DNA from: Methylophilus sp. 42
Lineage (GTDB): Bacteria; Pseudomonadota; Gammaproteobacteria; Burkholderiales; Methylophilaceae
NCBI RefSeq assembly: GCF_000384155.1
Contig: NZ_KB913031.1
Span: 868,001-932,000, forward strand
Direction: 5' to 3'
DNA: 64,000 nt
The notes beneath the pieces are model-generated. The model saw only the letters and a list, made by a program, of their open reading frames with translations, was not told the DNA's origin and did not search any database. The stretch's first letter is position 1, and the number at the start of each line of letters is the position of its first letter. Below are positions 9,787-46,408 of the stretch, in pieces. The translations under genes were made by a program, and so were the position numbers.

Positions 9787-9800
9787 TTTTTAGCCGAAAT

Positions 9801-9824
9801 AAAAGCCCTGCATGCAGGGCTTTT
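9801..9824 (+). terminator. Terminator of the SDR gene
   Basis: AAAAGCCCTG and CAGGGCTTTT form a 10-bp stem round CATG, 15 bp after the stop codon, ending in a T run. Confidence 0.85.
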
Positions 9825-9907
9825 GACGTTTAGAGGCTTGTAGCTTAATTGCCAAAAGGTAACATGAACTTCATACTCTAACCTCCGATTTTATAAAGGC
9901 TGAGCGA

Positions 9908-10459
9908 ATGCTTTTACAAGAACTAGTGGTATGGAAGCTAAAGCTACTTACATTCATTAATGGCATCCCTCAGTTTGTTCTCGTCGCCACCTTAATTGTT
10001 CTCGTACTACTACTTTTTAAAAAGAAAACTCCCACTCAACCATGGTGGAAAGATGTTGAATGGCCTTTTTATGCAAAGCAATTGTTATCACAACCTGAGC
10101 AAGTCCTTTTTCATCGCTTAATTAATGCTTTACCTGATCATATTGTCTTGGCGCAAGTTCAGGTTTCACAAGTACTTGGTGTTAAAAAAGGGGTGAATTT
10201 TTATGAGTGGAATAATCGCATTAACCGCCTAAGCTACGACTTTGTAATTTGCAGAAAAGATTGCTCAGTTGTAGCGGTTATTGAATTAGATGATAAATCG
10301 CACGAAAGCAAAGACCGCATTGAGGCTGACAAAAGAAAAGATAGGGCAACTGCTTCAGCGGGTATTCGGATGATTCGTTGGCACGTAAAATCTATGCCTG
10401 ACGAAATTACTATTGTGGATACATTCATCACGCTATTGCCAACTGAAGTTCGTAGTTAA
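9908..10459 (+). CDS. DUF2726-domain protein
   Basis: 183 residues: an N-terminal hydrophobic segment (about 20-38) and a DUF2726 region (about 55-178) with FHRLINALPDHIVLAQVQVSQVLGV, DFVICRKDCSVVAVIELDDKSHESKDR and a late GIRMIRWHV. DUF2726 is thought to be related to restriction-endonuclease-like folds; the D...E-x-D pattern here would fit but is not proof. Start ATG at 9908 follows AAGGCTGAGCGA. The base composition is visibly more AT-rich than the genes on either side. It is followed by the HD-ATPase gene and may belong with it. Confidence 0.75.
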   Translation: MLLQELVVWKLKLLTFINGIPQFVLVATLIVLVLLLFKKKTPTQPWWKDVEWPFYAKQLLSQPEQVLFHRLINALPDHIVLAQVQVSQVLGVKKGVNFYEWNNRINRLSYDFVICRKDCSVVAVIELDDKSHESKDRIEADKRKDRATASAGIRMIRWHVKSMPDEITIVDTFITLLPTEVRS

Positions 10460-10561
10460 ACTAAAATAGTTAGAGTAATACTTTTCAACAATGCTTCATA
10501 TTGGTATAGAAGATTGATGCAGCTAGATTATGTGCAAAATGGAATTGTTAAGGAATACAAG

Positions 10562-13006
10562 ATGAACAAAATTTACGATGATTGGCATGCCGAAACGCAA
10601 AGCCGACTTGAGAAAAGCAACATATTCATCACATTAAAAAATAAATGCGTTGACGATCCAGCCGGAAATCAAGTGTTAACGCTTATTGATGAAGCAACCT
10701 ACTATGCTTTTCAAAGGACAAAGACAATTGTAAAACACATGGGCGAATTCACCCTTCATGACGGGGACCATTTGTTTCGTGTTTTAACTTTAATGGAAAG
10801 GCTTCTTTCACCGGATCAAATTAAAGAGCTATCTGTTCCTGAATTAATGCTTCTAATTTTAAGTGCTTTTTTTCACGATATAGGTATGGCACCGGATGAG
10901 GCAGATGTTCAGGCTTGGAAAAAATTTTTTGATAAAGAGCCTAAATTTGCCTCTGATCATGAAAGGAACGAATTCGAACTATTTCTAAGATTTTCTGTTT
11001 CAAGGCCTGATCAAATAGACAGAATTAATAGCTACCTGCAGCAAGGAAACACCAGCGCCTCGGACTTAGCCAAAAATTATCTGATAAGCGATTACATTAG
11101 AGTCACTCATGCAGACAGGGCGCGAAAAATAATCCAAAAAGATTGGGTTGATAAGATACTGTACAGGGATACAGACCTTACAGTTGAATTCGCAAATGTA
11201 TGCTTTAGTCACAATGAAGATGCCTTAAAAATCCTTGAGTTGGATAAGAACTACCTTTGTGGGCCTGAAACATACGCATGTTTGCCAGTGGTGGCTGCTA
11301 TTTTACGGTTGGCTGATTTGTTGGATTTCGATGCGAAACGAACCCCAAGCGTTTTATTTTCTCATCTTTTTGTGCGGCACCCTGTATCTATCCAGGAGTG
11401 GAATAAACACAGAGCTGTTGAAGCTTGGACTATAAGTTCAACCCTTATACAGTTTCATGCAAAATGTACACATCCTGCAATCCAATCATCCATAAATGCT
11501 TTCTGTGACATTATCGATAACGAGCTTAGCGCTTGTAATAATATTCTCTCGTCATTAAATGAATTTAACAAAAGCTTAGGTCGGAATTTGTCTATTAAAA
11601 TTCCTTTCAAAGTAGATCGTTCCAAGATCGAAACAAAAAAAATGATCGATGGGAAACCTGAGTTTCTATATAGGGAAACTCAATTTAACCTAAGCAAAAA
11701 TCAGGTTATTGATTTACTTATGGGTACAAAACTATATGGCGACCCCGAAGTAGCTCTACGCGAATTATTACAAAACTCAATTGATGCATGCTTATTGCGT
11801 GAAGCTATGGAACATAGCTGGGGAAATAATTACACTCCAGAAATTCATATCAAATATCACACACTTGATGATGAAGACATCCTTGAAATTATTGATAATG
11901 GAATTGGTATGGATCAGCATGTGATTGATAACTACTACTCTAAAGTCGGATCATCCTATTATAAGTCTTCCGATTTCTATGATTTAAAATCCAAATCTAA
12001 CGCCAAATTTACACCTACCTCTAGATTCGGAATAGGTATTTTGTCGTGTTTTATGGTCGCTGACACTATTGTGGTAGATACAAGAAAGCTATATGGTCCT
12101 CACGACTCAAGTGAAGCTTTAAATCTTACAATCGAGGGGCAGGAAAGCATTTTTTGGATCAAACCGGGTGATAGAAAAACGCCAGGAACTACAACGAAGC
12201 TTTATTTGAGAAAACAGCAAAATCCCTGGGAAAAAATGGATGAAAACGAATTCATAGAGTCAGTTGAAAATGTTGTCCCGAACCCACCATTTAGGATTTC
12301 TATTGAAAGTAAGTCTCATAAGAAATTCCGAGATCAAGATAGCTTCAAAGAATTGAAAGCAACCTCTCTTAAGAATTACTCATGGAATTCACACGAAAAT
12401 ATCCGAGAGTTTGTAATTGAGTTTAATAAACCCGAATTGGGGTTTATTGGTTCTGCCGTAGTAGCGATTCTGGAAAGCCATGGACTGCCCATTGATCAGA
12501 TTTCTATGACTACAAAGTCTGTGGAGATTGATGGTGAAAATTATAACCTTGAGAAATCAATTGAATTGGAAGGGAAGGAGATTAGTTTAAGTACAACTTC
12601 TATTACCATTGATGAAGACGGTAGGATTGAATCATCAAACAGCTCTAGTCGGCTTGCGCACTCCAAATCTCGCATCTCATTTCACGGAATTGAAGTTCCT
12701 TCCAGTCTTTTTACTGATTACTGGGCAACACAAAAAAATCAAGCTAATCTAATCTGGCCGGTGCCAATCCTTCTTGTAATTGATATATGTGGAACCAGAG
12801 ACTTAGAACTTAACTCTTCAAGGACACAAATTCTAAAAGGTGACAAGTGGACTAAATTTGAAGCTGCCTTTGCACATGAGGTTTTTTTTGCAATCATGAA
12901 AGCTGTTGAACCGGAGTATTGGGAAAAACTAAAGGGAATACTACTAACCGCATCCGACAACGAAATCATCACTCATGTATTGGATGACCTCGTTTATGAA
13001 ACATAG
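10562..13006 (+). CDS. HD-domain and HSP90-type ATPase fusion protein
   Basis: About 814 residues. An HD domain lies at about 60-250, with HDGDH (66-70) and HDIG (105-108), both metal-binding type. A GHKL/HSP90-type ATPase follows at about 385-510: N box in ELLQNSIDAC, G1 in EIIDNGIGMD and G2 in SRFGIGILSC. The rest (about 510-814) has no domain I recognise. The ATG at 10562 has AAGGA ten bases upstream; an earlier TTG/ATG at 10514/10517 lacks one. Strongly AT-rich against its surroundings. Such fusions are found among predicted conflict-system proteins; role here is inference. Confidence 0.8.
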   Translation: MNKIYDDWHAETQSRLEKSNIFITLKNKCVDDPAGNQVLTLIDEATYYAFQRTKTIVKHMGEFTLHDGDHLFRVLTLMERLLSPDQIKELSVPELMLLILSAFFHDIGMAPDEADVQAWKKFFDKEPKFASDHERNEFELFLRFSVSRPDQIDRINSYLQQGNTSASDLAKNYLISDYIRVTHADRARKIIQKDWVDKILYRDTDLTVEFANVCFSHNEDALKILELDKNYLCGPETYACLPVVAAILRLADLLDFDAKRTPSVLFSHLFVRHPVSIQEWNKHRAVEAWTISSTLIQFHAKCTHPAIQSSINAFCDIIDNELSACNNILSSLNEFNKSLGRNLSIKIPFKVDRSKIETKKMIDGKPEFLYRETQFNLSKNQVIDLLMGTKLYGDPEVALRELLQNSIDACLLREAMEHSWGNNYTPEIHIKYHTLDDEDILEIIDNGIGMDQHVIDNYYSKVGSSYYKSSDFYDLKSKSNAKFTPTSRFGIGILSCFMVADTIVVDTRKLYGPHDSSEALNLTIEGQESIFWIKPGDRKTPGTTTKLYLRKQQNPWEKMDENEFIESVENVVPNPPFRISIESKSHKKFRDQDSFKELKATSLKNYSWNSHENIREFVIEFNKPELGFIGSAVVAILESHGLPIDQISMTTKSVEIDGENYNLEKSIELEGKEISLSTTSITIDEDGRIESSNSSSRLAHSKSRISFHGIEVPSSLFTDYWATQKNQANLIWPVPILLVIDICGTRDLELNSSRTQILKGDKWTKFEAAFAHEVFFAIMKAVEPEYWEKLKGILLTASDNEIITHVLDDLVYET

Positions 13007-13092
13007 TAACCTTTACCTTTTATATTATGTGTAAGTTGGTAAACATTCAAATAACATGCGGCAATACTTGGCGGAAATTTTTTAATAGTTAG

Positions 13093-14445: not shown

Positions 14446-14522
14446 TGGTGGTGAAAGAGGGACTTGAACCCTCGACCCCAGGATTATGAATCCTGTGCTC
14501 TAACCAGCTGAGCTACATCACC
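14446..14522 (-). tRNA. tRNA-Met (CAT), elongator type
   Basis: 77-nt cloverleaf with encoded CCA. Acceptor GGTGATG, D arm AGCTCAGCTGGTTAGAGC, anticodon loop TTCATAA, T arm GGGTTCAAGTCCC. Conserved positions follow elongator tRNA-Met rather than initiator (5'-G pairs normally at 1-72). A lysidine-modified Ile tRNA cannot be excluded on anticodon alone. Confidence 0.93.
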
Positions 14523-40437: not shown

Positions 40438-41292
40438 TTATTTGCTTTCCAGCATATAGGTTTTGATTTTTTGCATCGCCTTCTGCTCAATCTGGCGGAT
40501 ACGTTCGGCAGACACATTAAACTCTGCAGCCAATTCATGCAGCGTAGAGGCATTGCCCTCGGTCAACCAGCGTGCTTGCAGCACACGGCGGCTACGCTCA
40601 TCCAGTTGTTGCAAAGCCATGCTCAAGCCTTCAGTTTGCAGATGCTCGTTTTGCAGGTTTTCCAGCAAGGTCGATGGCTCAGGGCCTTCATCTTCGAGGA
40701 ACGCGATCGGGCTATACACTTCTTCGCCGTCGTCATCCAACTGCGCATCCAGTGAAATCTCCTGACCGTTCAGACGGTATTCCATCTCGGTCACTTCTTC
40801 CGGCTTCACATTCAGCTCGGTGGCGATACGGTGCACGTCATCCGGGCTCAGCGTTTCAAAGCCTTGCTTCATGCTGCGCAAATTAAAAAACAGTTTACGC
40901 TGTGCTTTGGTGGTCGCGGTTTTCACCAGGCGCCAGTTACGCACGATGTATTCATGGATCTCGGCTTTAATCCAGTGCATGGCAAATGAGACCAGGCGCA
41001 CGCCACGGTCAGGGTCAAAGCGTTTCACCGCTTTCATCAAGCCAATATTGCCTTCCTGAATCAGGTCAGACTGTGGCAAACCATAACCGCTATAACCACG
41101 GGCAATGCTCGCGACCAGGCGCAGATGCGACACGATCAGTGCGCGCGCAGCCTCCAGGTCACCACTTTGTTTCAACTCAGTCGCATAGCTGTATTCTTCT
41201 TCAGCCGTGAGCACTGGAAACTGCTTGATGGTGCGCAGATATTTATCCAGGCTGTCAGCCGAGGAAACGACAGGTAAAGTTAACGCGTTGAT
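40438..41292 (-). CDS. rpoH: Heat-shock sigma factor RpoH (sigma-32), apparent AUC/AUU start
   Basis: About 284 residues. Directs RNA polymerase to heat-shock promoters. Region 2 (LRLVASIARGYSGYGLPQSDLIQEGNIGLMKAVKRFDP), the RpoH box (KLFFNLRSMKQ) and region 4 (LAAEFNVSAERIRQIEQKAMQKI) are all there. The first ATG/GTG in frame (GTG at 41214) would remove the conserved N-terminus SLDKYLRTIKQFP, which is encoded in frame upstream. The only good ribosome site is AAGGAG at 41299-41304, six bases before ATC at 41292 (ATT at 41295); no ATG, GTG or TTG lies between it and the in-frame stop. CIRCE operator upstream. Confidence 0.9.
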   Translation of the reverse strand: MNALTLPVVSSADSLDKYLRTIKQFPVLTAEEEYSYATELKQSGDLEAARALIVSHLRLVASIARGYSGYGLPQSDLIQEGNIGLMKAVKRFDPDRGVRLVSFAMHWIKAEIHEYIVRNWRLVKTATTKAQRKLFFNLRSMKQGFETLSPDDVHRIATELNVKPEEVTEMEYRLNGQEISLDAQLDDDGEEVYSPIAFLEDEGPEPSTLLENLQNEHLQTEGLSMALQQLDERSRRVLQARWLTEGNASTLHELAAEFNVSAERIRQIEQKAMQKIKTYMLESK

Positions 41293-41298
41293 AATAAA

Positions 41299-41304
41299 CT
41301 CCTT
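41299..41304 (-). promoter_or_regulatory. Ribosome binding site deciding the rpoH start
   Basis: AAGGAG on the minus strand, followed by TTTATTATC. It points to ATC (6-nt spacing) or ATT (3-nt spacing) as the start; there is no such site near the GTG at 41214. Confidence 0.7.
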
Positions 41305-41330
41305 ATTGAAAGAAGATGTTTAAAATGATT

Positions 41331-41357
41331 TTAGCACTCAAAGCTTGAGAGTGCTAG
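41331..41357 (-). promoter_or_regulatory. CIRCE operator (HrcA site) upstream of rpoH
   Basis: TTAGCACTC, nine bases, then GAGTGCTAG: 17 of 18 positions match the CIRCE consensus bound by the heat-shock repressor HrcA. On the minus strand its end overlaps a TAAAAT -10-like hexamer, so HrcA binding should block rpoH transcription. Confidence 0.88.
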
Positions 41358-41785
41358 CCCATTCAAAAGTTCAATGCGATTGGACTTGTTTGTGTACAGG
41401 TATTTGTAGGATGAGTGTCGGATTAGCCATAAATATCGCAATCGGTGCCATAAACTACTTTTTCATCTCAATTAAGAATAATCACTTAGCTTATTGGCCT
41501 GTAAAGGCAATATTTAAGCCAGTTCAATCAAAACCTTTATCTTCGGATGCGCCGAAAACTGAAAGGCATGTGAGCGCTTTGTTCCGTGAAGATGTTTCTG
41601 ATTTGAAAGACTTAAATGCTTCGATTGCTGGATGTTGAATTGCAAGCAGTTAATGTGTTCTTTTTCGCATGGAAATGTTGGGCAGTAAGCATCCATGGCT
41701 CCGCCTTTTTAAGGATGGCTTTAAATTTAAGCTGGCACAGATTCTGCTGAGTTACGTAAAAATCAAAAAAACTGTAAAGCCATCT
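41358..41785. other. Intergenic stretch between rpoH and a secreted protein gene
   Basis: About 430 bp with no convincing gene. A 75-codon reading frame from ATG 41411 has only weak support. The stretch becomes AT-rich towards its end and marks the edge of the accessory region. Both flanking genes must have promoters here; only the CIRCE-linked one can be placed. Confidence 0.5.
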
Positions 41786-42316
41786 ATGAAGAAAATATTA
41801 ATTTCTCTAATTGTAGCAATTCAATTTCTAATGCCTGTAGCAGCAGACACCCTTTCAGAAAGGGACAAAGTCGAAATTGCCGCACTTTTCGATAAAGTTA
41901 ACCAAGCATTAGCTACTAGGGAACCAAAGGTAATTACAGAAACTACTTTTGGTCCGATTCTAGCCATCATGGGTGGGCAAGAAAAATATATCGAGCGGTT
42001 AGAAAATACGTTTAAAGATATGGATGCACAAAAGCTAAAACTCATCTCTTACACAAATAAAATCCCAGACACTGCGGCAAAATCAAAACAATATTTAATT
42101 TGTACTATCAGAGAGGTCTCAATTCTGGAGAAGCCCGGTCTGAAACTTCAGGTCAATGGATTTACTTTGGCAGTGAGAAAGATTTCAGGTGGTGAGTGGA
42201 AGTTAATTGGAGGCAATGGTGTATCTAAAAATCCGAAAGTTCTGAATTTTTTATTTCCTGGATTAGATAAAAATTTCGAAGTGCCTGAGTATGTATCATT
42301 TAATTTAGACTCATAG
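41786..42316 (+). CDS. Secreted hypothetical protein
   Basis: 176 residues with a signal peptide (MKKILISLIVAIQFLMPVAA) and a mature part with no family I know (ITETTFGPILAIMGGQEKYIERLENTFKDMD; GGEWKLIGGNG). The size and WKLI-type strand suggest a small alpha+beta fold of the NTF2-like kind; this is a guess. ATG 41786 is chosen because it begins the signal peptide. AT-rich, isolated. Confidence 0.65.
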   Translation: MKKILISLIVAIQFLMPVAADTLSERDKVEIAALFDKVNQALATREPKVITETTFGPILAIMGGQEKYIERLENTFKDMDAQKLKLISYTNKIPDTAAKSKQYLICTIREVSILEKPGLKLQVNGFTLAVRKISGGEWKLIGGNGVSKNPKVLNFLFPGLDKNFEVPEYVSFNLDS

Positions 42317-42450
42317 ATGTTGTACATTTCTTTCTCTGGTAGTTTGTCGACTTTGCGTTTCATGTATTAGGTCGACATCCACGTTAGCTATCATTGATAG
42401 AGATAGATCATGGTGCATGATTGGACGCGCAAAGCGTGGCCATATTTTAT

Positions 42451-43203
42451 TTATAAAGTGCGCCCAAGCCCTAGCAATACTCTATCTTTCACTGCAAGTA
42501 GCTCCGTTTTGAAGTTTTCCAGATCAGTGTCAAAACGACAACTTGGAGTGACGATTGCAATGACGTAATTTCCCATAAAGGTTTCTAGTGCGATACCTAT
42601 TGCGCTGATGCCTATAATGTATTCATTGCGGTCAATCGCAAACCCTGTCTCCCTGGTTTGTTTCAAGTCTTCAAGAAGGCTTTGCAAGTCCTTCGTATGT
42701 TCCGTGTGTTTGGGGTATTTTTTCCCAATTCTTTGAACCACTTCTTTGTCAGATAGGCTTGCAAGAAGAAGCTTGCCATCTACTGCCGTATAAAGTGTAT
42801 GTACCGCTCCCAGTGCGGCAACTACGCGTAACTCCCTTTCAGCGACAATTCGGTCAATTACATTGGTCTGTTGAGATGAAAAGGAAGATAAGACAACGGT
42901 CTCGTTGACCTTTTTCGATAGTTGCTCCAGTTGAGGCCGCATCACAGAGATGATATCAATTTGCGTCTCATGAATGAGTTGGCCAAAAGTCATACCCAAT
43001 TTGAATCCTCTGCCGCCATCCATCATGGCAACCAGACCTTCATGCTCTAACGCTTTGACAATTCGTTGGACTGTTGAACGCGGCAGATCAACCAACTCTG
43101 AAATTTTCCCAAGACTAAGTCCGGCCGGATTTTTTGCCAGTACTCGAAGAATGGTTGAGGCGCGGTTGATTACCTGGATGCCATTAGCGGATTCACTATT
43201 CAT
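42451..43203 (-). CDS. IclR-family transcriptional regulator
   Basis: 250 residues: winged HTH (about 8-68: RASTILRVLAKNPAGLSLGKISELVDLPRSTVQRIVKALEHEGLV) and a C-terminal GAF-like effector domain (about 80-248). It is transcribed away from the receptor-oxidoreductase genes downstream and is the likely regulator of that locus. Effector unknown, plausibly the substrate or its acid. Confidence 0.88.
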   Translation of the reverse strand: MNSESANGIQVINRASTILRVLAKNPAGLSLGKISELVDLPRSTVQRIVKALEHEGLVAMMDGGRGFKLGMTFGQLIHETQIDIISVMRPQLEQLSKKVNETVVLSSFSSQQTNVIDRIVAERELRVVAALGAVHTLYTAVDGKLLLASLSDKEVVQRIGKKYPKHTEHTKDLQSLLEDLKQTRETGFAIDRNEYIIGISAIGIALETFMGNYVIAIVTPSCRFDTDLENFKTELLAVKDRVLLGLGRTL

Positions 43204-43300
43204 TTCTATGATTTTTAAGAAAACAATACTGTGAATTATCCGCCTATATACAACGCTATGCCACCTCTAAAATTTAACCGTATGTTGGTATGTTGTATCG

Positions 43301-43315
43301 TTATGTGGTACATAA
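43301..43315. promoter_or_regulatory. Candidate operator upstream of the IclR gene
   Basis: TTATGT, GGT, ACATAA: a perfect 6-bp inverted repeat with 3-bp spacer, 98 bp upstream of the IclR start in an AT-rich intergenic region of about 270 bp. Could be an autoregulatory site. Based on symmetry only. Confidence 0.3.
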
Positions 43316-43470
43316 TTTGCAGTCACTAATGATGATTGATATTTATTTATCGCTTCTGGCCGTACGCATGCATAAAAAAGTACACGATGTTTGATACGCA
43401 ACTTTTACTGTTCGCTATCAAACATTTTTGTCGGACTGGCAGAAGCAATTTTCGGTGATTTTTCCAATTC

Positions 43471-43944
43471 ATGAGTATGAAACCAACACGAGAACTGATA
43501 AGAATTTCAGACAAGTCGGAGGATAGTCTTTTACGGGCTGTACAAATCATCCGTAAAACAAAAGACTTGTCTCAACTGAGGCAAGCACAAGCCTTTTTGT
43601 TGACTTGCGTTCATGGAATGACAGCAAGTGAAGCCTCCTCCTTATTAGGAATATCAGTCAATTGGGTCTATAAACTTCGTCAGAATTTCCTGAAAGGTAA
43701 TCTGGTGCTTGGTAGGAATGCTTCTGCATTGGGTGGGCGACGCCGCGAAAATATGACCTTGGCGCAGGAAAGTAGGTTTTTGCATCCATATTTCCAAGCC
43801 GCCAAGCATGGAGAGGCTATCAGGGTATCTGATGTTAAGACGGCTTTAGAAGAGCATTTAGGCCGGAAAGTAGCGTTGTCTTCAGTATATAACCTTTTAA
43901 AACGCCATAAGCTGATGCAGATATCCTCGAAAGTTACCAAATAG
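43471..43944 (+). CDS. Stand-alone IS630-type winged-HTH protein
   Basis: 157 residues. SQLRQAQAFLLTCVHGMTASEASSLLGISVNWVYKLRQNFL and LGGRRRENMTLAQESRFL...ALEEHLGRKVALSSVYNLLKRH match the N-terminal DNA-binding half of IS630/Tc1-type transposases. The DDE catalytic half is absent and the reading frame ends soon after the second HTH. It may be a truncated insertion-sequence remnant or a domesticated regulator; the open frame and lack of inverted repeats favour the latter weakly. It lies just upstream of the TonB-dependent receptor gene. Confidence 0.72.
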   Translation: MSMKPTRELIRISDKSEDSLLRAVQIIRKTKDLSQLRQAQAFLLTCVHGMTASEASSLLGISVNWVYKLRQNFLKGNLVLGRNASALGGRRRENMTLAQESRFLHPYFQAAKHGEAIRVSDVKTALEEHLGRKVALSSVYNLLKRHKLMQISSKVTK

Positions 43945-44101
43945 TTTTTGAGCAACCTCTAATTTTTTCGATGTTCTTTTATTAATGAAATAGAAATTAA
44001 CGCTAACTGATGGTTAGGCATGTATGTTGCCATTTTAAGCCCACAGAAATTAATAAAACATTAGTTTCGATTTTTTCATTAATTTTAAGGGTGAAGAAGG
44101 A

Positions 44102-46408
44102 ATGTCTCACAACATTATTAAGAAGCCTGCCATCAAAAAGCTCACGCTGGCAGTCTACGGTGCCATGTTTCTCTCTGGGGCGGGAGTTGCTCTGGCGGAA
44201 GACGCTCAAGGTAACAGTGAGGAGTCGGCAGATTTGGGTGCTGTCGTTGTTCAAGGCAAGACTCAGCCACTTGTCGGTGATACACCTAAAGAAACCATCG
44301 CAGAATCTAGAGCAACTTTAAGTAAGTCCCAGCTTGAGAAGTTTGTCGGCCTGGATTCAGCTGTCACAGGCGCGTTGAAATATTTGCCCGGCATCCATTT
44401 TAGTGGTGGGGATACATCAGGGATCAGTGAAGGTAATTTATCTATTAGAGGGTTTTCTCAAGATCAAATTGGTGTAACCAGAAATGGTATTCCTTTGAAT
44501 GATCCACTATACCTGACCCCTCACAGCGATTTCTTCGGAGATCCGGAGAATTACGAATCCATTAGCGTCATATACGGTGGGCAGTCGATTAATGCACCTA
44601 CACTCACGGCGAGTGGCGGCAGTATAGAAATTCAAACTGTCAAACCTACCAAAGAGGCAGGCTTATTGGTCAAGCAAGGTTTCGGTAGTAATAATACTCG
44701 TCGTTCATTTGTCCGAGCGAATCTCGGCGAAAAAAATGGATTCTCTGCCTGGGTATCGGCCTCCAGAACAACGGCTGACTTATGGACTAGTGGCACAGGC
44801 GCAGTCGAATCGAACCGCTTCGAGGGCAACTTGCAATACGAATGGGGAAATAACAATAGCATCAATGCTATCTTTTCCATATTTAGTATGAGAAGTAACA
44901 GTTATTCTCACCCAACCCTTGCTCAATATAAGTTTCAGCCGTACGACGCGAATTATTCAAGTGCCATTAACTCCACCTATGGTGGAACGAATGGCGTTGC
45001 TGATATTTCTGCAGCAACATCTAATAGTGCGAAACTACAGCGAGCTGACTTCAAAATTCAGACCTACGGCCTTAATGGTTTATTCAACCTGACCGACAAT
45101 GCGCATCTTCATGTCGACCCATACTTCGTTCGAGTAACAGACGGTACGGCAACAGTGTTCGCATCAGCGATTCCCGAGTCTGTGCTGAATGCTGATGTGA
45201 ACGGGGATGGCGATCTTCTTGATATCAGGCCATTTGCTGGCGGTGTATTCCCAACGCAATATCGCGTAGGTTCATCTCAAAAGATCGACTTTGATCTGAC
45301 TGATACGAATGTATTGCAGGTTGGTGCCTGGTTTGATTACACCCATGCAACTAACCAAATGGCGGCGATTCCCTTAAGAAGTGATGGTAAGCCTGTTGCT
45401 ATTGATGGAAGCAAAATCATTCGAGATGTGAATGGTAAAGAGATCTTTTTCACTGATCAGAGAAGCAGGATGACAACCCAAAAACTCTGGGTACAGGACT
45501 CTTGGAACTTTGCTTCGCAATGGAATGCGAAAGGTGCGCTTGCGTGGCAGCATACCGAATATGAAGGTGAGAACATCGCAGGTGTGTTAAGTGGGTCAGC
45601 TTTCAAGCGATCGGCTGATTACTATAAGCTCCTCCCGAGTTTCAGCCTTGATTATCAGTATGATCAAAATAATCAGATTTACTACAACGCGACCACCAAT
45701 ATTCGTGTACCGGCTGTTGCTTCTATCTATGGTAACAACACGGGTGGTGATCAGAAAGCTGAAACTACCTTCAATCAGGAAATCGGCTGGCGCTACAGTA
45801 CGCCTGATGTATTAGTGAGTGCTGCACTGTTCTACGACCAATTTAAGAATCGTCAGGTTTCATACACGTCGTTGGGAACTACGTCCTATATCAATGCCGG
45901 TGCCGTGACGACAAAAGGCCTTGAGTTGGCTTTGAATGGTAAGTTGCCACACAACTTTAACTATCGTGGTTCCTGGACATACGTAAAAGCAGAACAGGAA
46001 GACAACTATGCTGCTGGAGGTCTGGAAGAAAATACCAAAGGCAATCAGCTATTCAACACGCCTAAGAATCTTTTATCCCTTGGGGTCGGATATGACGATG
46101 GTCGCTTATATAGCAATTTGCTAGCGCGCTACACCGGTAGCTTTTATGGCGATCTGGCGAATACAGAAAAGTTGAGCGGTTACACAGTTGTTGATCTTAA
46201 TCTTGGTTACAAGTTTGATCTCGGCAGCAAGATCGTCAAGAAAAGTACCATTAGCCTGAACGTGAATAATCTGTTTGATAAAGAGGCACTTTCAGGGCTG
46301 TATGCAGGCACTGTTTCTGCTAATACATCAAGCGCATTCTTTGCCGCACCTACCTACAACAGACTTCAACCACGAAGTGTGTTCGCTAATCTGACGTTGG
46401 AATTCTAA
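44102..46408 (+). CDS. TonB-dependent outer-membrane receptor
   Basis: 768 residues. Signal peptide to about residue 35, a TonB-box-like DLGAVVVQG, plug domain (about 60-185: GALKYLPGIHFSGGDTSGISEGNLSIRGFSQDQIGVTRNGIPLND), then a 22-strand barrel ending in the aromatic F of FANLTLEF. Energy-driven uptake of a molecule too large for porins. GAAGAAGG precedes the ATG. It heads the set receptor, GMC dehydrogenase, aldehyde dehydrogenase, MFS, TonB on one strand. Confidence 0.92.
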   Translation: MSHNIIKKPAIKKLTLAVYGAMFLSGAGVALAEDAQGNSEESADLGAVVVQGKTQPLVGDTPKETIAESRATLSKSQLEKFVGLDSAVTGALKYLPGIHFSGGDTSGISEGNLSIRGFSQDQIGVTRNGIPLNDPLYLTPHSDFFGDPENYESISVIYGGQSINAPTLTASGGSIEIQTVKPTKEAGLLVKQGFGSNNTRRSFVRANLGEKNGFSAWVSASRTTADLWTSGTGAVESNRFEGNLQYEWGNNNSINAIFSIFSMRSNSYSHPTLAQYKFQPYDANYSSAINSTYGGTNGVADISAATSNSAKLQRADFKIQTYGLNGLFNLTDNAHLHVDPYFVRVTDGTATVFASAIPESVLNADVNGDGDLLDIRPFAGGVFPTQYRVGSSQKIDFDLTDTNVLQVGAWFDYTHATNQMAAIPLRSDGKPVAIDGSKIIRDVNGKEIFFTDQRSRMTTQKLWVQDSWNFASQWNAKGALAWQHTEYEGENIAGVLSGSAFKRSADYYKLLPSFSLDYQYDQNNQIYYNATTNIRVPAVASIYGNNTGGDQKAETTFNQEIGWRYSTPDVLVSAALFYDQFKNRQVSYTSLGTTSYINAGAVTTKGLELALNGKLPHNFNYRGSWTYVKAEQEDNYAAGGLEENTKGNQLFNTPKNLLSLGVGYDDGRLYSNLLARYTGSFYGDLANTEKLSGYTVVDLNLGYKFDLGSKIVKKSTISLNVNNLFDKEALSGLYAGTVSANTSSAFFAAPTYNRLQPRSVFANLTLEF

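What the first reader, a model, noticed from the sequence alone, without database searches (positions are those of the whole stretch)
9908..13006. AT-rich two-gene islet: DUF2726 protein and HD-HSP90 ATPase fusion
Between two ordinary metabolic genes lies a visibly AT-rich pair: a membrane-anchored DUF2726 protein and an 814-residue protein joining an HD hydrolase to a GHKL/HSP90-type ATPase and an unassigned C-terminus. ATPase-plus-hydrolase fusions with nuclease-like neighbours fit the pattern of bacterial conflict systems. The pairing itself may be an undescribed system.
Basis: partly seen in the sequence, partly recalled or inferred. Interest (0 to 1): 0.7.

Follow-up and report, generated by a model that had tools for sequence, protein, structure and literature searches.

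The report
Transferred HD-HSP90 putative phage-defence gene
A bacterium carries a probably foreign gene that joins a predicted nucleotide-cutting enzyme to a heat-shock-protein-90-like switch, likely an anti-virus device of a kind already predicted by others; the nuclease-like gene beside it is most likely a chance neighbour.

Summary
The 814-aa protein is HD-CE (Pfam PF24391, E 1e-55) joined to an HSP90-type ATPase; its "unassigned C-terminus" is most likely the HSP90 middle domain, with the dimerisation domain apparently missing. HD and ATP motifs are conserved. The gene is rare (own genome only, of 150 in its family), yet 58-79% identical in five distant records, so it travels horizontally. 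Four of five close relatives with usable flanks lie near restriction, OLD/Gabija-like, Lamassu-like or SIR2 genes; the same site holds a complete Lamassu in a congener. DUF2726 is not its partner: none of seven relative loci has it, six other HD-HSP90 genomes lack the family, and nine DUF2726 loci lack HD-HSP90. Best reading: a one-gene conflict system in which an HSP90 clamp gates an HD nucleotide hydrolase. Such HSP90-coupled HD-CE effectors were predicted in 2023 (recalled; paper not held), so this is a new member of a known kind. The two-gene claim is not supported; function is untested.

The parts
9825..13073 (.). Variable islet between SDR and MFS genes
   Evidence: DNA similarity to congeners ends at 9790-9824 on the left (L029, L031, L032) and resumes at 13074 on the right (L029); GC 0.376 over 9908-13006
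10562..13006 (+). HD-CE / HSP90 N-M fusion protein, 814 aa (the finding proper)
   Evidence: relatives L003/L033, L005-L009 at 58-79%
10742..11530 (+). HD-CE domain, residues 61-323
   Evidence: PF24391 189.6 bits, cut-off 27; H66, D67, H70, H105, H217, D252 conserved in all rows that cover them
11678..12316 (+). HSP90 N-terminal ATPase domain, residues 373-585
   Evidence: NCBIfam HSP90 models E 1e-27 and 6e-24, below their equivalog cut-offs; PDB Hsp90 N-domains, best E 4e-12; E401, N405, D408, D445, G447, G449, G490, G492 invariant in 7 of 7
12317..13003 (+). HSP90 middle-like domain, residues 586-814, with DLELNSSR motif (R754, 12821-12823)
   Evidence: Foldseek and VIA-align: model residues 381-814 on Hsp90/TRAP1 N+M, Z 14.3, 318 aligned, rmsd 6.2, on a model of mean pLDDT 58.6; R754 invariant in 7 of 7; hhalign to own HtpG picks this motif but not significantly, E 0.21-0.34
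9908..10459 (+). DUF2726 protein, one predicted membrane segment, REase-like fold; neighbour, not judged part of the system
   Evidence: PF10881 E 7e-24; hydrophobic segment 19-37; REase fold per PMC3710099 passages; pairing not recurrent
14446..14522 (-). tRNA-Met, an apparent integration hotspot in congeners
   Evidence: tRNA-Met-like partial copies in L029, truncated tRNA-Met beside an integrase gene in L030

Best explanation
The gene at 10562-13006 is a horizontally acquired, probably self-sufficient anti-phage (conflict) gene. Its HSP90 N-M part acts as an ATP-driven clamp that holds the protein off until it meets an infection cue; clamp rearrangement then switches on the HD-CE part, which hydrolyses nucleotides or a nucleotide-like substrate and stops phage replication or the cell. 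The HSP90 C-terminal dimerisation domain appears to be missing, so any dimer would form through the HD part or on ATP closure. DUF2726 is a neighbour, not a partner. Shown: architecture, conserved catalytic motifs, patchy distribution across phyla, defence neighbourhoods, variable defence site, lack of recurrent pairing. Inferred: sensing, switching, substrate, defence.
For: Domains. Motifs kept. Rarity and transfer: own genome only, of 150 in the family; 3 of 369 in the class; 1 of 398 in the phylum; yet 79% in a Nitrospirota MAG, 78% in an alphaproteobacterial MAG, 72% in an Acidobacteriaceae MAG, 59% in a Bacteroidetes MAG and in a Desulfovibrio. Defence neighbours in 4 of 5 close relatives with usable flanks (L005, L006, L009, L033; not L008). 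PADLOC at E<=1e-15: 50 (overlapping) families matched among 50 neighbour ORFs of six HD-HSP90 loci, against 1 family among 66 neighbour ORFs of seven DUF2726 loci. Same site in a congener: Lamassu LmuA/B/C (E 2e-94, 9e-168, 3e-50) plus a kinase. Distant relatives within about 5 kb of Shedu, AbiEii, Abi and Gabija genes on plasmids and on a contig of the viral collection. Precedents: GHKL-Shedu VcSduA (PMC12137116 passage); HD dNTPase Clover (PMC12265719 passages).
Against: No activity was tested. L008 and distant L034 have no defence neighbour that I recognise; L061 and L062, further HD-CE loci read by eye, lie among mostly housekeeping and toxin-antitoxin-like ORFs. L005 and L033 have an SMC-like ATPase in tight operon with it, so it may not act alone everywhere. 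The full-length model is poor (pLDDT 58.6), the HSP90-half model too (51.7). No att-like repeat was seen at the islet's edges. PADLOC gives only weak partial hits. Four of the five GTDB-contig relatives are MAGs. The defence-neighbour control is not matched for taxonomy.
Confidence: 0.6

Rival explanations
1. DUF2726 and HD-HSP90 form a two-gene system: a membrane-anchored REase-fold nuclease plus a switchable hydrolase.
For: Same strand, 102 bp apart, no promoter- or terminator-like site in the gap by a simple scan; same low GC and GC3; DUF2726 is REase-fold and fused to an Abi domain elsewhere (PMC3710099 passages).
Against: 0 of 7 relative loci hold a P0001 relative; 0 of 6 other HD-HSP90 genomes hold PF10881; 0 of 9 DUF2726 loci hold HD-HSP90; in the congeners read, DUF2726 sits among ordinary genes (by eye).
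Confidence: 0.08
2. HD-HSP90 is one module of a larger SMC/Lamassu-like complex; here it is an orphan that works with a distant partner or not at all.
For: LmuB-like SMC ATPase directly upstream in L005 (18 bp gap) and L033 (4-bp overlap with the upstream-most start, 23-bp gap from the aligned start), with a SIR2-like gene in L033.
Against: No such gene within the islet here; L008 and L009 have no SMC ATPase directly upstream yet keep the same motifs.
Confidence: 0.17
3. The protein is a stress or chaperone-related regulator carried as neutral cargo by mobile elements, not a defence gene.
For: HSP90 relationship; mobile-element and viral-contig settings; some loci without recognised defence genes.
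Against: Apparent lack of the HSP90 C-terminal domain; HD motif kept; defence-rich neighbourhoods and defence hotspot.
Confidence: 0.12

Closest known systems
HD-CE / HSP90-coupled nucleotide-targeting conflict systems (Nicastro et al. 2023, NAR gkad879; content recalled; Pfam PF24391, PF24401, PF24410 seen)
   Same: HD-CE domain fused to an HSP90-type ATPase; defence neighbourhoods
   Different: Paper not held, so whether this exact subfamily was listed could not be checked
VcSduA, GHKL ATPase-Shedu fusion (PMC12137116, passage seen)
   Same: GHKL/HSP90-class ATPase joined to an effector enzyme, with phage phenotypes reported
   Different: Effector there is a PD-(D/E)xK nuclease C-terminal to the ATPase; here an N-terminal HD hydrolase
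Clover CloA HD dNTPase (PMC12265719, passages seen)
   Same: HD-domain anti-phage protein; its system is credited there to the same 2023 survey
   Different: Octameric dNTPase with an accessory nucleotidyltransferase CloB; no HSP90 part mentioned in the paper's main text (term search)
HtpG / TRAP1 / HSP90 chaperones
   Same: N and apparently M domains, ATP motifs, Arg motif in the M domain
   Different: C-terminal dimerisation domain apparently absent; N-terminal HD-CE instead
Lamassu (LmuA/B/C)
   Same: Occupies the same chromosomal site in a congener; LmuB-like ATPase is operon neighbour in two relatives
   Different: No SMC ATPase in this islet

Membership tests
HD-CE (PF24391) | Profile match above curated cut-off | tested here: met
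   189.6 bits against 27
HD-CE (PF24391) | H...HD...D metal-binding residues (motif recalled) | tested here: met
   H66/H70, H105, D252 conserved in every row covering them; D106 follows in the HDIGM motif
HD-CE (PF24391) | Nucleotide hydrolysis | not testable with these tools
   Needs biochemistry
HSP90 | N-domain ATP motifs (E-x3-N, DxGxG, GxG; recalled) | tested here: met
   Invariant in 7 of 7; PDB Hsp90 matches
HSP90 | Middle domain fold and catalytic Arg | tested here: inconclusive
   Fold aligned over 381-814, Z 14.3 on a model of pLDDT 58.6; motif found but hhalign E 0.21-0.34
HSP90 | C-terminal dimerisation domain | tested here: inconclusive
   The last model residues (812-814) align with TRAP1 469-486, e.g. 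4ivg, titled NTD-middle domain; no residues remain for a further domain, but the model is weak
Two-gene DUF2726 + HD-HSP90 system | Recurrent co-occurrence | tested here: not met
   0 of 7 loci, 0 of 6 other genomes, 0 of 9 DUF2726 loci
Anti-phage defence system | Location in defence islands or hotspots | tested here: met
   4 of 5 close relatives; Lamassu at same site in G115
Anti-phage defence system | Protection against phage | not testable with these tools
   Needs phage assay
Lamassu | LmuA and LmuB genes together | tested here: not met
   Only DUF2726 and HD-HSP90 were found in the islet

The most novel reading that the evidence does not exclude
A single protein uses an HSP90 N-M clamp, stripped of its dimerisation domain, as an infection sensor that directly gates a fused HD nucleotide hydrolase: a chaperone-type switch doing the job that STAND or SMC ATPases do in other immune systems, and not found as an experiment in the held library (term searches and capped listings; most subscription papers are not held).
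Probability: 0.42. Interest if true: 0.62.

Novelty: new member of a known kind. Interest (0 to 1): 0.36.

Why it matters
It gives a compact, intact-looking example of the predicted HSP90-gated nucleotide-targeting class, conserved at 58-79% across phyla, in a setting with no obvious partner, which would make the class directly testable with one gene. It also removes a tempting but unsupported two-gene claim and points to a tRNA-Met site where congeners hold different defence cassettes.

Tried and rejected
Two-gene system: rejected on three co-occurrence tests. Lamassu membership: rejected, no SMC gene in the islet. Chaperone HtpG paralogue: thought unlikely; an HtpG-like gene lies elsewhere in the genome (place 2381081) and the fusion seems to lack the C-terminal domain. 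Islet as an integrase-borne element in this genome: no integrase in the islet, no tRNA fragment and no exact direct repeat over 9 bp between its edges, so the mode of insertion is unknown.

Led nowhere: AlphaFold models were poor (full length 58.6; HSP90 half 51.7, not searched further); viral-contig scan with P0002 alone found no relative; the phages collection gave one weak hit; PADLOC and NCBIfam gave no model for the full architecture. Paper searches listed no held paper on an HD-HSP90 defence protein.

Rows chosen: of 15 plasmid records, I opened five (H7, H8, H10, H11, H12); H9 has the same match figures as H8, and the rest were partial or HtpG-like. H11 (Azospirillum, L068) carried no annotation. 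Three further HD-CE stretches were read by ORF only (L061-L063): L061 and L062 lie among mostly housekeeping or toxin-antitoxin-like ORFs, L063 beside an ATPase-like and a Vsr-like ORF, all by eye and outside the counts. L007 was left out of the neighbour count because its contig is 3.1 kb; L006 has only 0.5 kb upstream. The control count used six HD-HSP90 loci (L005, L006, L008, L009, L033, L034) and seven of nine DUF2726 loci (L044 and L051 left out), ORFs of 130 aa or more within 6 kb; the plasmid loci were not in it. In one search the L033 LmuB-like ORF was added by hand because its 4-bp overlap had dropped it from the script's list. One search prints only 25 of its 50 families and not which ORF matched, so 'no defence neighbour' for L008 and L034 rests on reading ORFs.

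Full report
Observation. The two ORFs stand as described: 9908-10459 (+, 183 aa) and 10562-13006 (+, 814 aa; a TTG at 10514 would give 830). An AAGGA sequence lies just before the ATG at 10562. GC is 0.388 and 0.377 against 0.488 for the window; the islet (0.376) coincides with the window's lowest 3.1-kb stretch (0.373). GC3 is 0.33-0.34 against 0.47, 0.55 and 0.61 in SDR, MFS and YchF.

What the big protein is. Residues 61-323 match HD-CE (PF24391) at E 1e-55, and only weakly the form named iHD-CE (2e-12). Residues 373-585 match HSP90 models (NCBIfam E 1e-27, below the equivalog cut-off) and solved Hsp90 N-domains. The rest was unassigned by profiles. The AlphaFold model is poor (mean pLDDT 58.6), yet the 50 PDB matches that Foldseek shows (of 688) are all Hsp90 chains, and VIA-align places residues 381-814 on the N and middle domains of TRAP1/Hsp90 (best Z 14.3, 318 aligned, rmsd 6.2). 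A motif DLELNSSR at 747-754 resembles DLPLNVSR of the genome's own HtpG; hhalign of the C-terminal part picks this place but not significantly (E 0.21-0.34). The role of that arginine in HSP90 ATP hydrolysis is recalled. The sequence ends about where the HSP90 C-terminal dimerisation domain would begin. H66, D67, H70, H105, H217, D252 (HD) and E401, N405, D408, D445, G447, G449, G490, G492, R754 are conserved in every row of a seven-sequence alignment that covers them.

Where else it occurs. Among 150 genomes of its own family only this genome has it at E 1e-30, in the class 3 of 369 at E 1e-30, in the phylum 1 of 398 at E 1e-40. Still, a scan of GTDB contigs found relatives at 79% in a Nitrospirota MAG, 78% in an alphaproteobacterial MAG (3.1-kb contig), 72% in an Acidobacteriaceae MAG, 59% in a Bacteroidetes MAG and 59% in Desulfovibrio sp. 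DV; G499 has one at 65%. Four of the five are MAGs, two of them with isolate names of one series (OFTM), so binning errors could inflate single cases; G499, the Desulfovibrio and the absence from congeners still point to transfer. HD-CE as a family was found in 5 of 369 class genomes. More distant proteins with HD-CE plus HATPase domains sit on plasmids of Aliarcobacter (in two annotated ORFs), Hymenobacter and Lachnospira, an HD-CE protein on a Pantoea plasmid, and an HD-CE/HATPase protein on a contig of the viral collection that also has an integrase ORF.

Neighbourhoods. Of five close relatives with usable flanks, four have defence-type neighbours: L005 an SMC-like ATPase related to LmuB 18 bp upstream; L033 a SIR2-like gene, a 207-aa gene and an LmuB-like ATPase that overlaps the longest reading by 4 bp (23 bp from the aligned start); L006 a type III restriction-modification pair and a PDC-S06 ATPase; L009 an Old/GajA-like gene (in two ORFs) and AbiEii. 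L008 has none that I recognise, nor has the distant L034. On plasmids the distant relatives lie within about 5 kb of Shedu, AbiEii, an Abi protein and Gabija GajA/GajB. As a rough control, 50 neighbour ORFs of six HD-HSP90 loci matched 50 PADLOC families at E<=1e-15, while 66 neighbour ORFs of seven DUF2726 loci matched one. The families overlap, so these are not 50 separate genes, and the two sets differ in taxonomy.

The site here. In congener G115 the same LysR-SDR ... MFS-tRNA-Met-YchF order is kept (flanks 87-93% identical), but between SDR and MFS lies another cassette: a complete Lamassu (LmuA 2e-94, LmuB 9e-168, LmuC 3e-50) and a Ser/Thr kinase like mad6 and PD-T4-6, flanked by two tRNA-Met-like stretches, one a partial 50-base copy. 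In G110 a truncated tRNA-Met adjoins an integrase gene, followed by an SMC-type ATPase gene. In G120 the interval to tRNA-Met holds a UvrD fragment and an HNH gene. So this looks like a defence hotspot. SDR was found in 4 of 22 and MFS in 3 of 22 genus genomes, own included, so an empty site was not established. No tRNA fragment or long direct repeat was seen at the islet's edges in this window.

The DUF2726 neighbour. It is a PF10881 protein (E 7e-24) with one hydrophobic segment, residues 19-37. A REase fold was assigned to DUF2726 in PMC3710099 (passages). Relatives at 52-55% occur in 5 of 21 other genus genomes, there among efflux, metabolic and transposon- or resolvase-like ORFs, two of them beside a PIN-domain-like (VapC-type) ORF (by eye), and on one viral contig. 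Pairing tests: P0001 finds nothing in seven HD-HSP90 loci, P0002 finds nothing in nine DUF2726 loci, and PF10881 is absent from all six other HD-HSP90 genomes (several are MAGs and may be incomplete). For pairing speak the shared strand, a 102-bp gap without promoter- or terminator-like site, and similar composition, which joint low-GC origin or two insertions would also give.

Mechanism. I infer that the HSP90 clamp keeps the HD-CE hydrolase silent and, on an infection cue, changes state with ATP and frees it to degrade nucleotides, in the manner of an abortive or phage-starving defence. Precedents seen as passages: VcSduA joins a GHKL ATPase to a Shedu nuclease, with reduced phage plating and plaque size reported (PMC12137116); Clover has an HD dNTPase with an accessory nucleotidyltransferase (PMC12265719). 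The step from homology to function is not shown here.

Novelty. Nicastro et al. 2023 named HD-CE and described HSP90-coupled nucleotide-targeting immune systems; I recall this from the abstract. The paper is not held, its title was seen in reference lists, and Pfam holds HD-CE, iHD-CE and wHTH-HSP90_Na-assoc. Hence: new member of a known, still largely predicted kind; ordinary as a category, useful as a clean test case.

Noticed in passing
L029:3397-9576 (G115:C1): Complete Lamassu (LmuA/B/C) and a PD-T4-6-like kinase between tRNA-Met-like stretches at the same SDR-MFS site; an apparent swap-in defence hotspot of this genus.
   Followed up: partly
L068:6510-11093 (Azospirillum brasilense plasmid NZ_CP059450.1): 1527-aa fusion with caspase (Peptidase_C14), iHD-CE and wHTH-HSP90_Na-assoc matches, with ORFs that look like a restriction-modification pair downstream (by eye, not scanned).
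   Followed up: partly
L033:8539-15571 (G499): Tight operon SIR2-like, 207-aa unknown, LmuB-like SMC ATPase, HD-HSP90: a possible composite Lamassu-like system with an HSP90-gated fourth gene.
   Followed up: partly
L036:7824-10766 (IMGVR_UViG_2648501202_000001): A distant HD-HSP90 protein (980 aa) on a contig of the viral collection, beside a replication-type ORF (by eye), with an integrase-like ORF 4 kb away.
   Followed up: partly
L062 (G323:C303:32358-33123): HD-CE match split over two frames: possibly a decayed copy, in a genome with a second HD-CE gene in one frame (L061).
   Followed up: no
window 40501-45600: Second lowest-GC stretch of the window (3.1-kb windows starting 40501-42501: 0.41-0.44); its ORFs look ordinary by eye (sigma factor, regulator, transposase-like HTH, TonB receptor).
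   Followed up: partly
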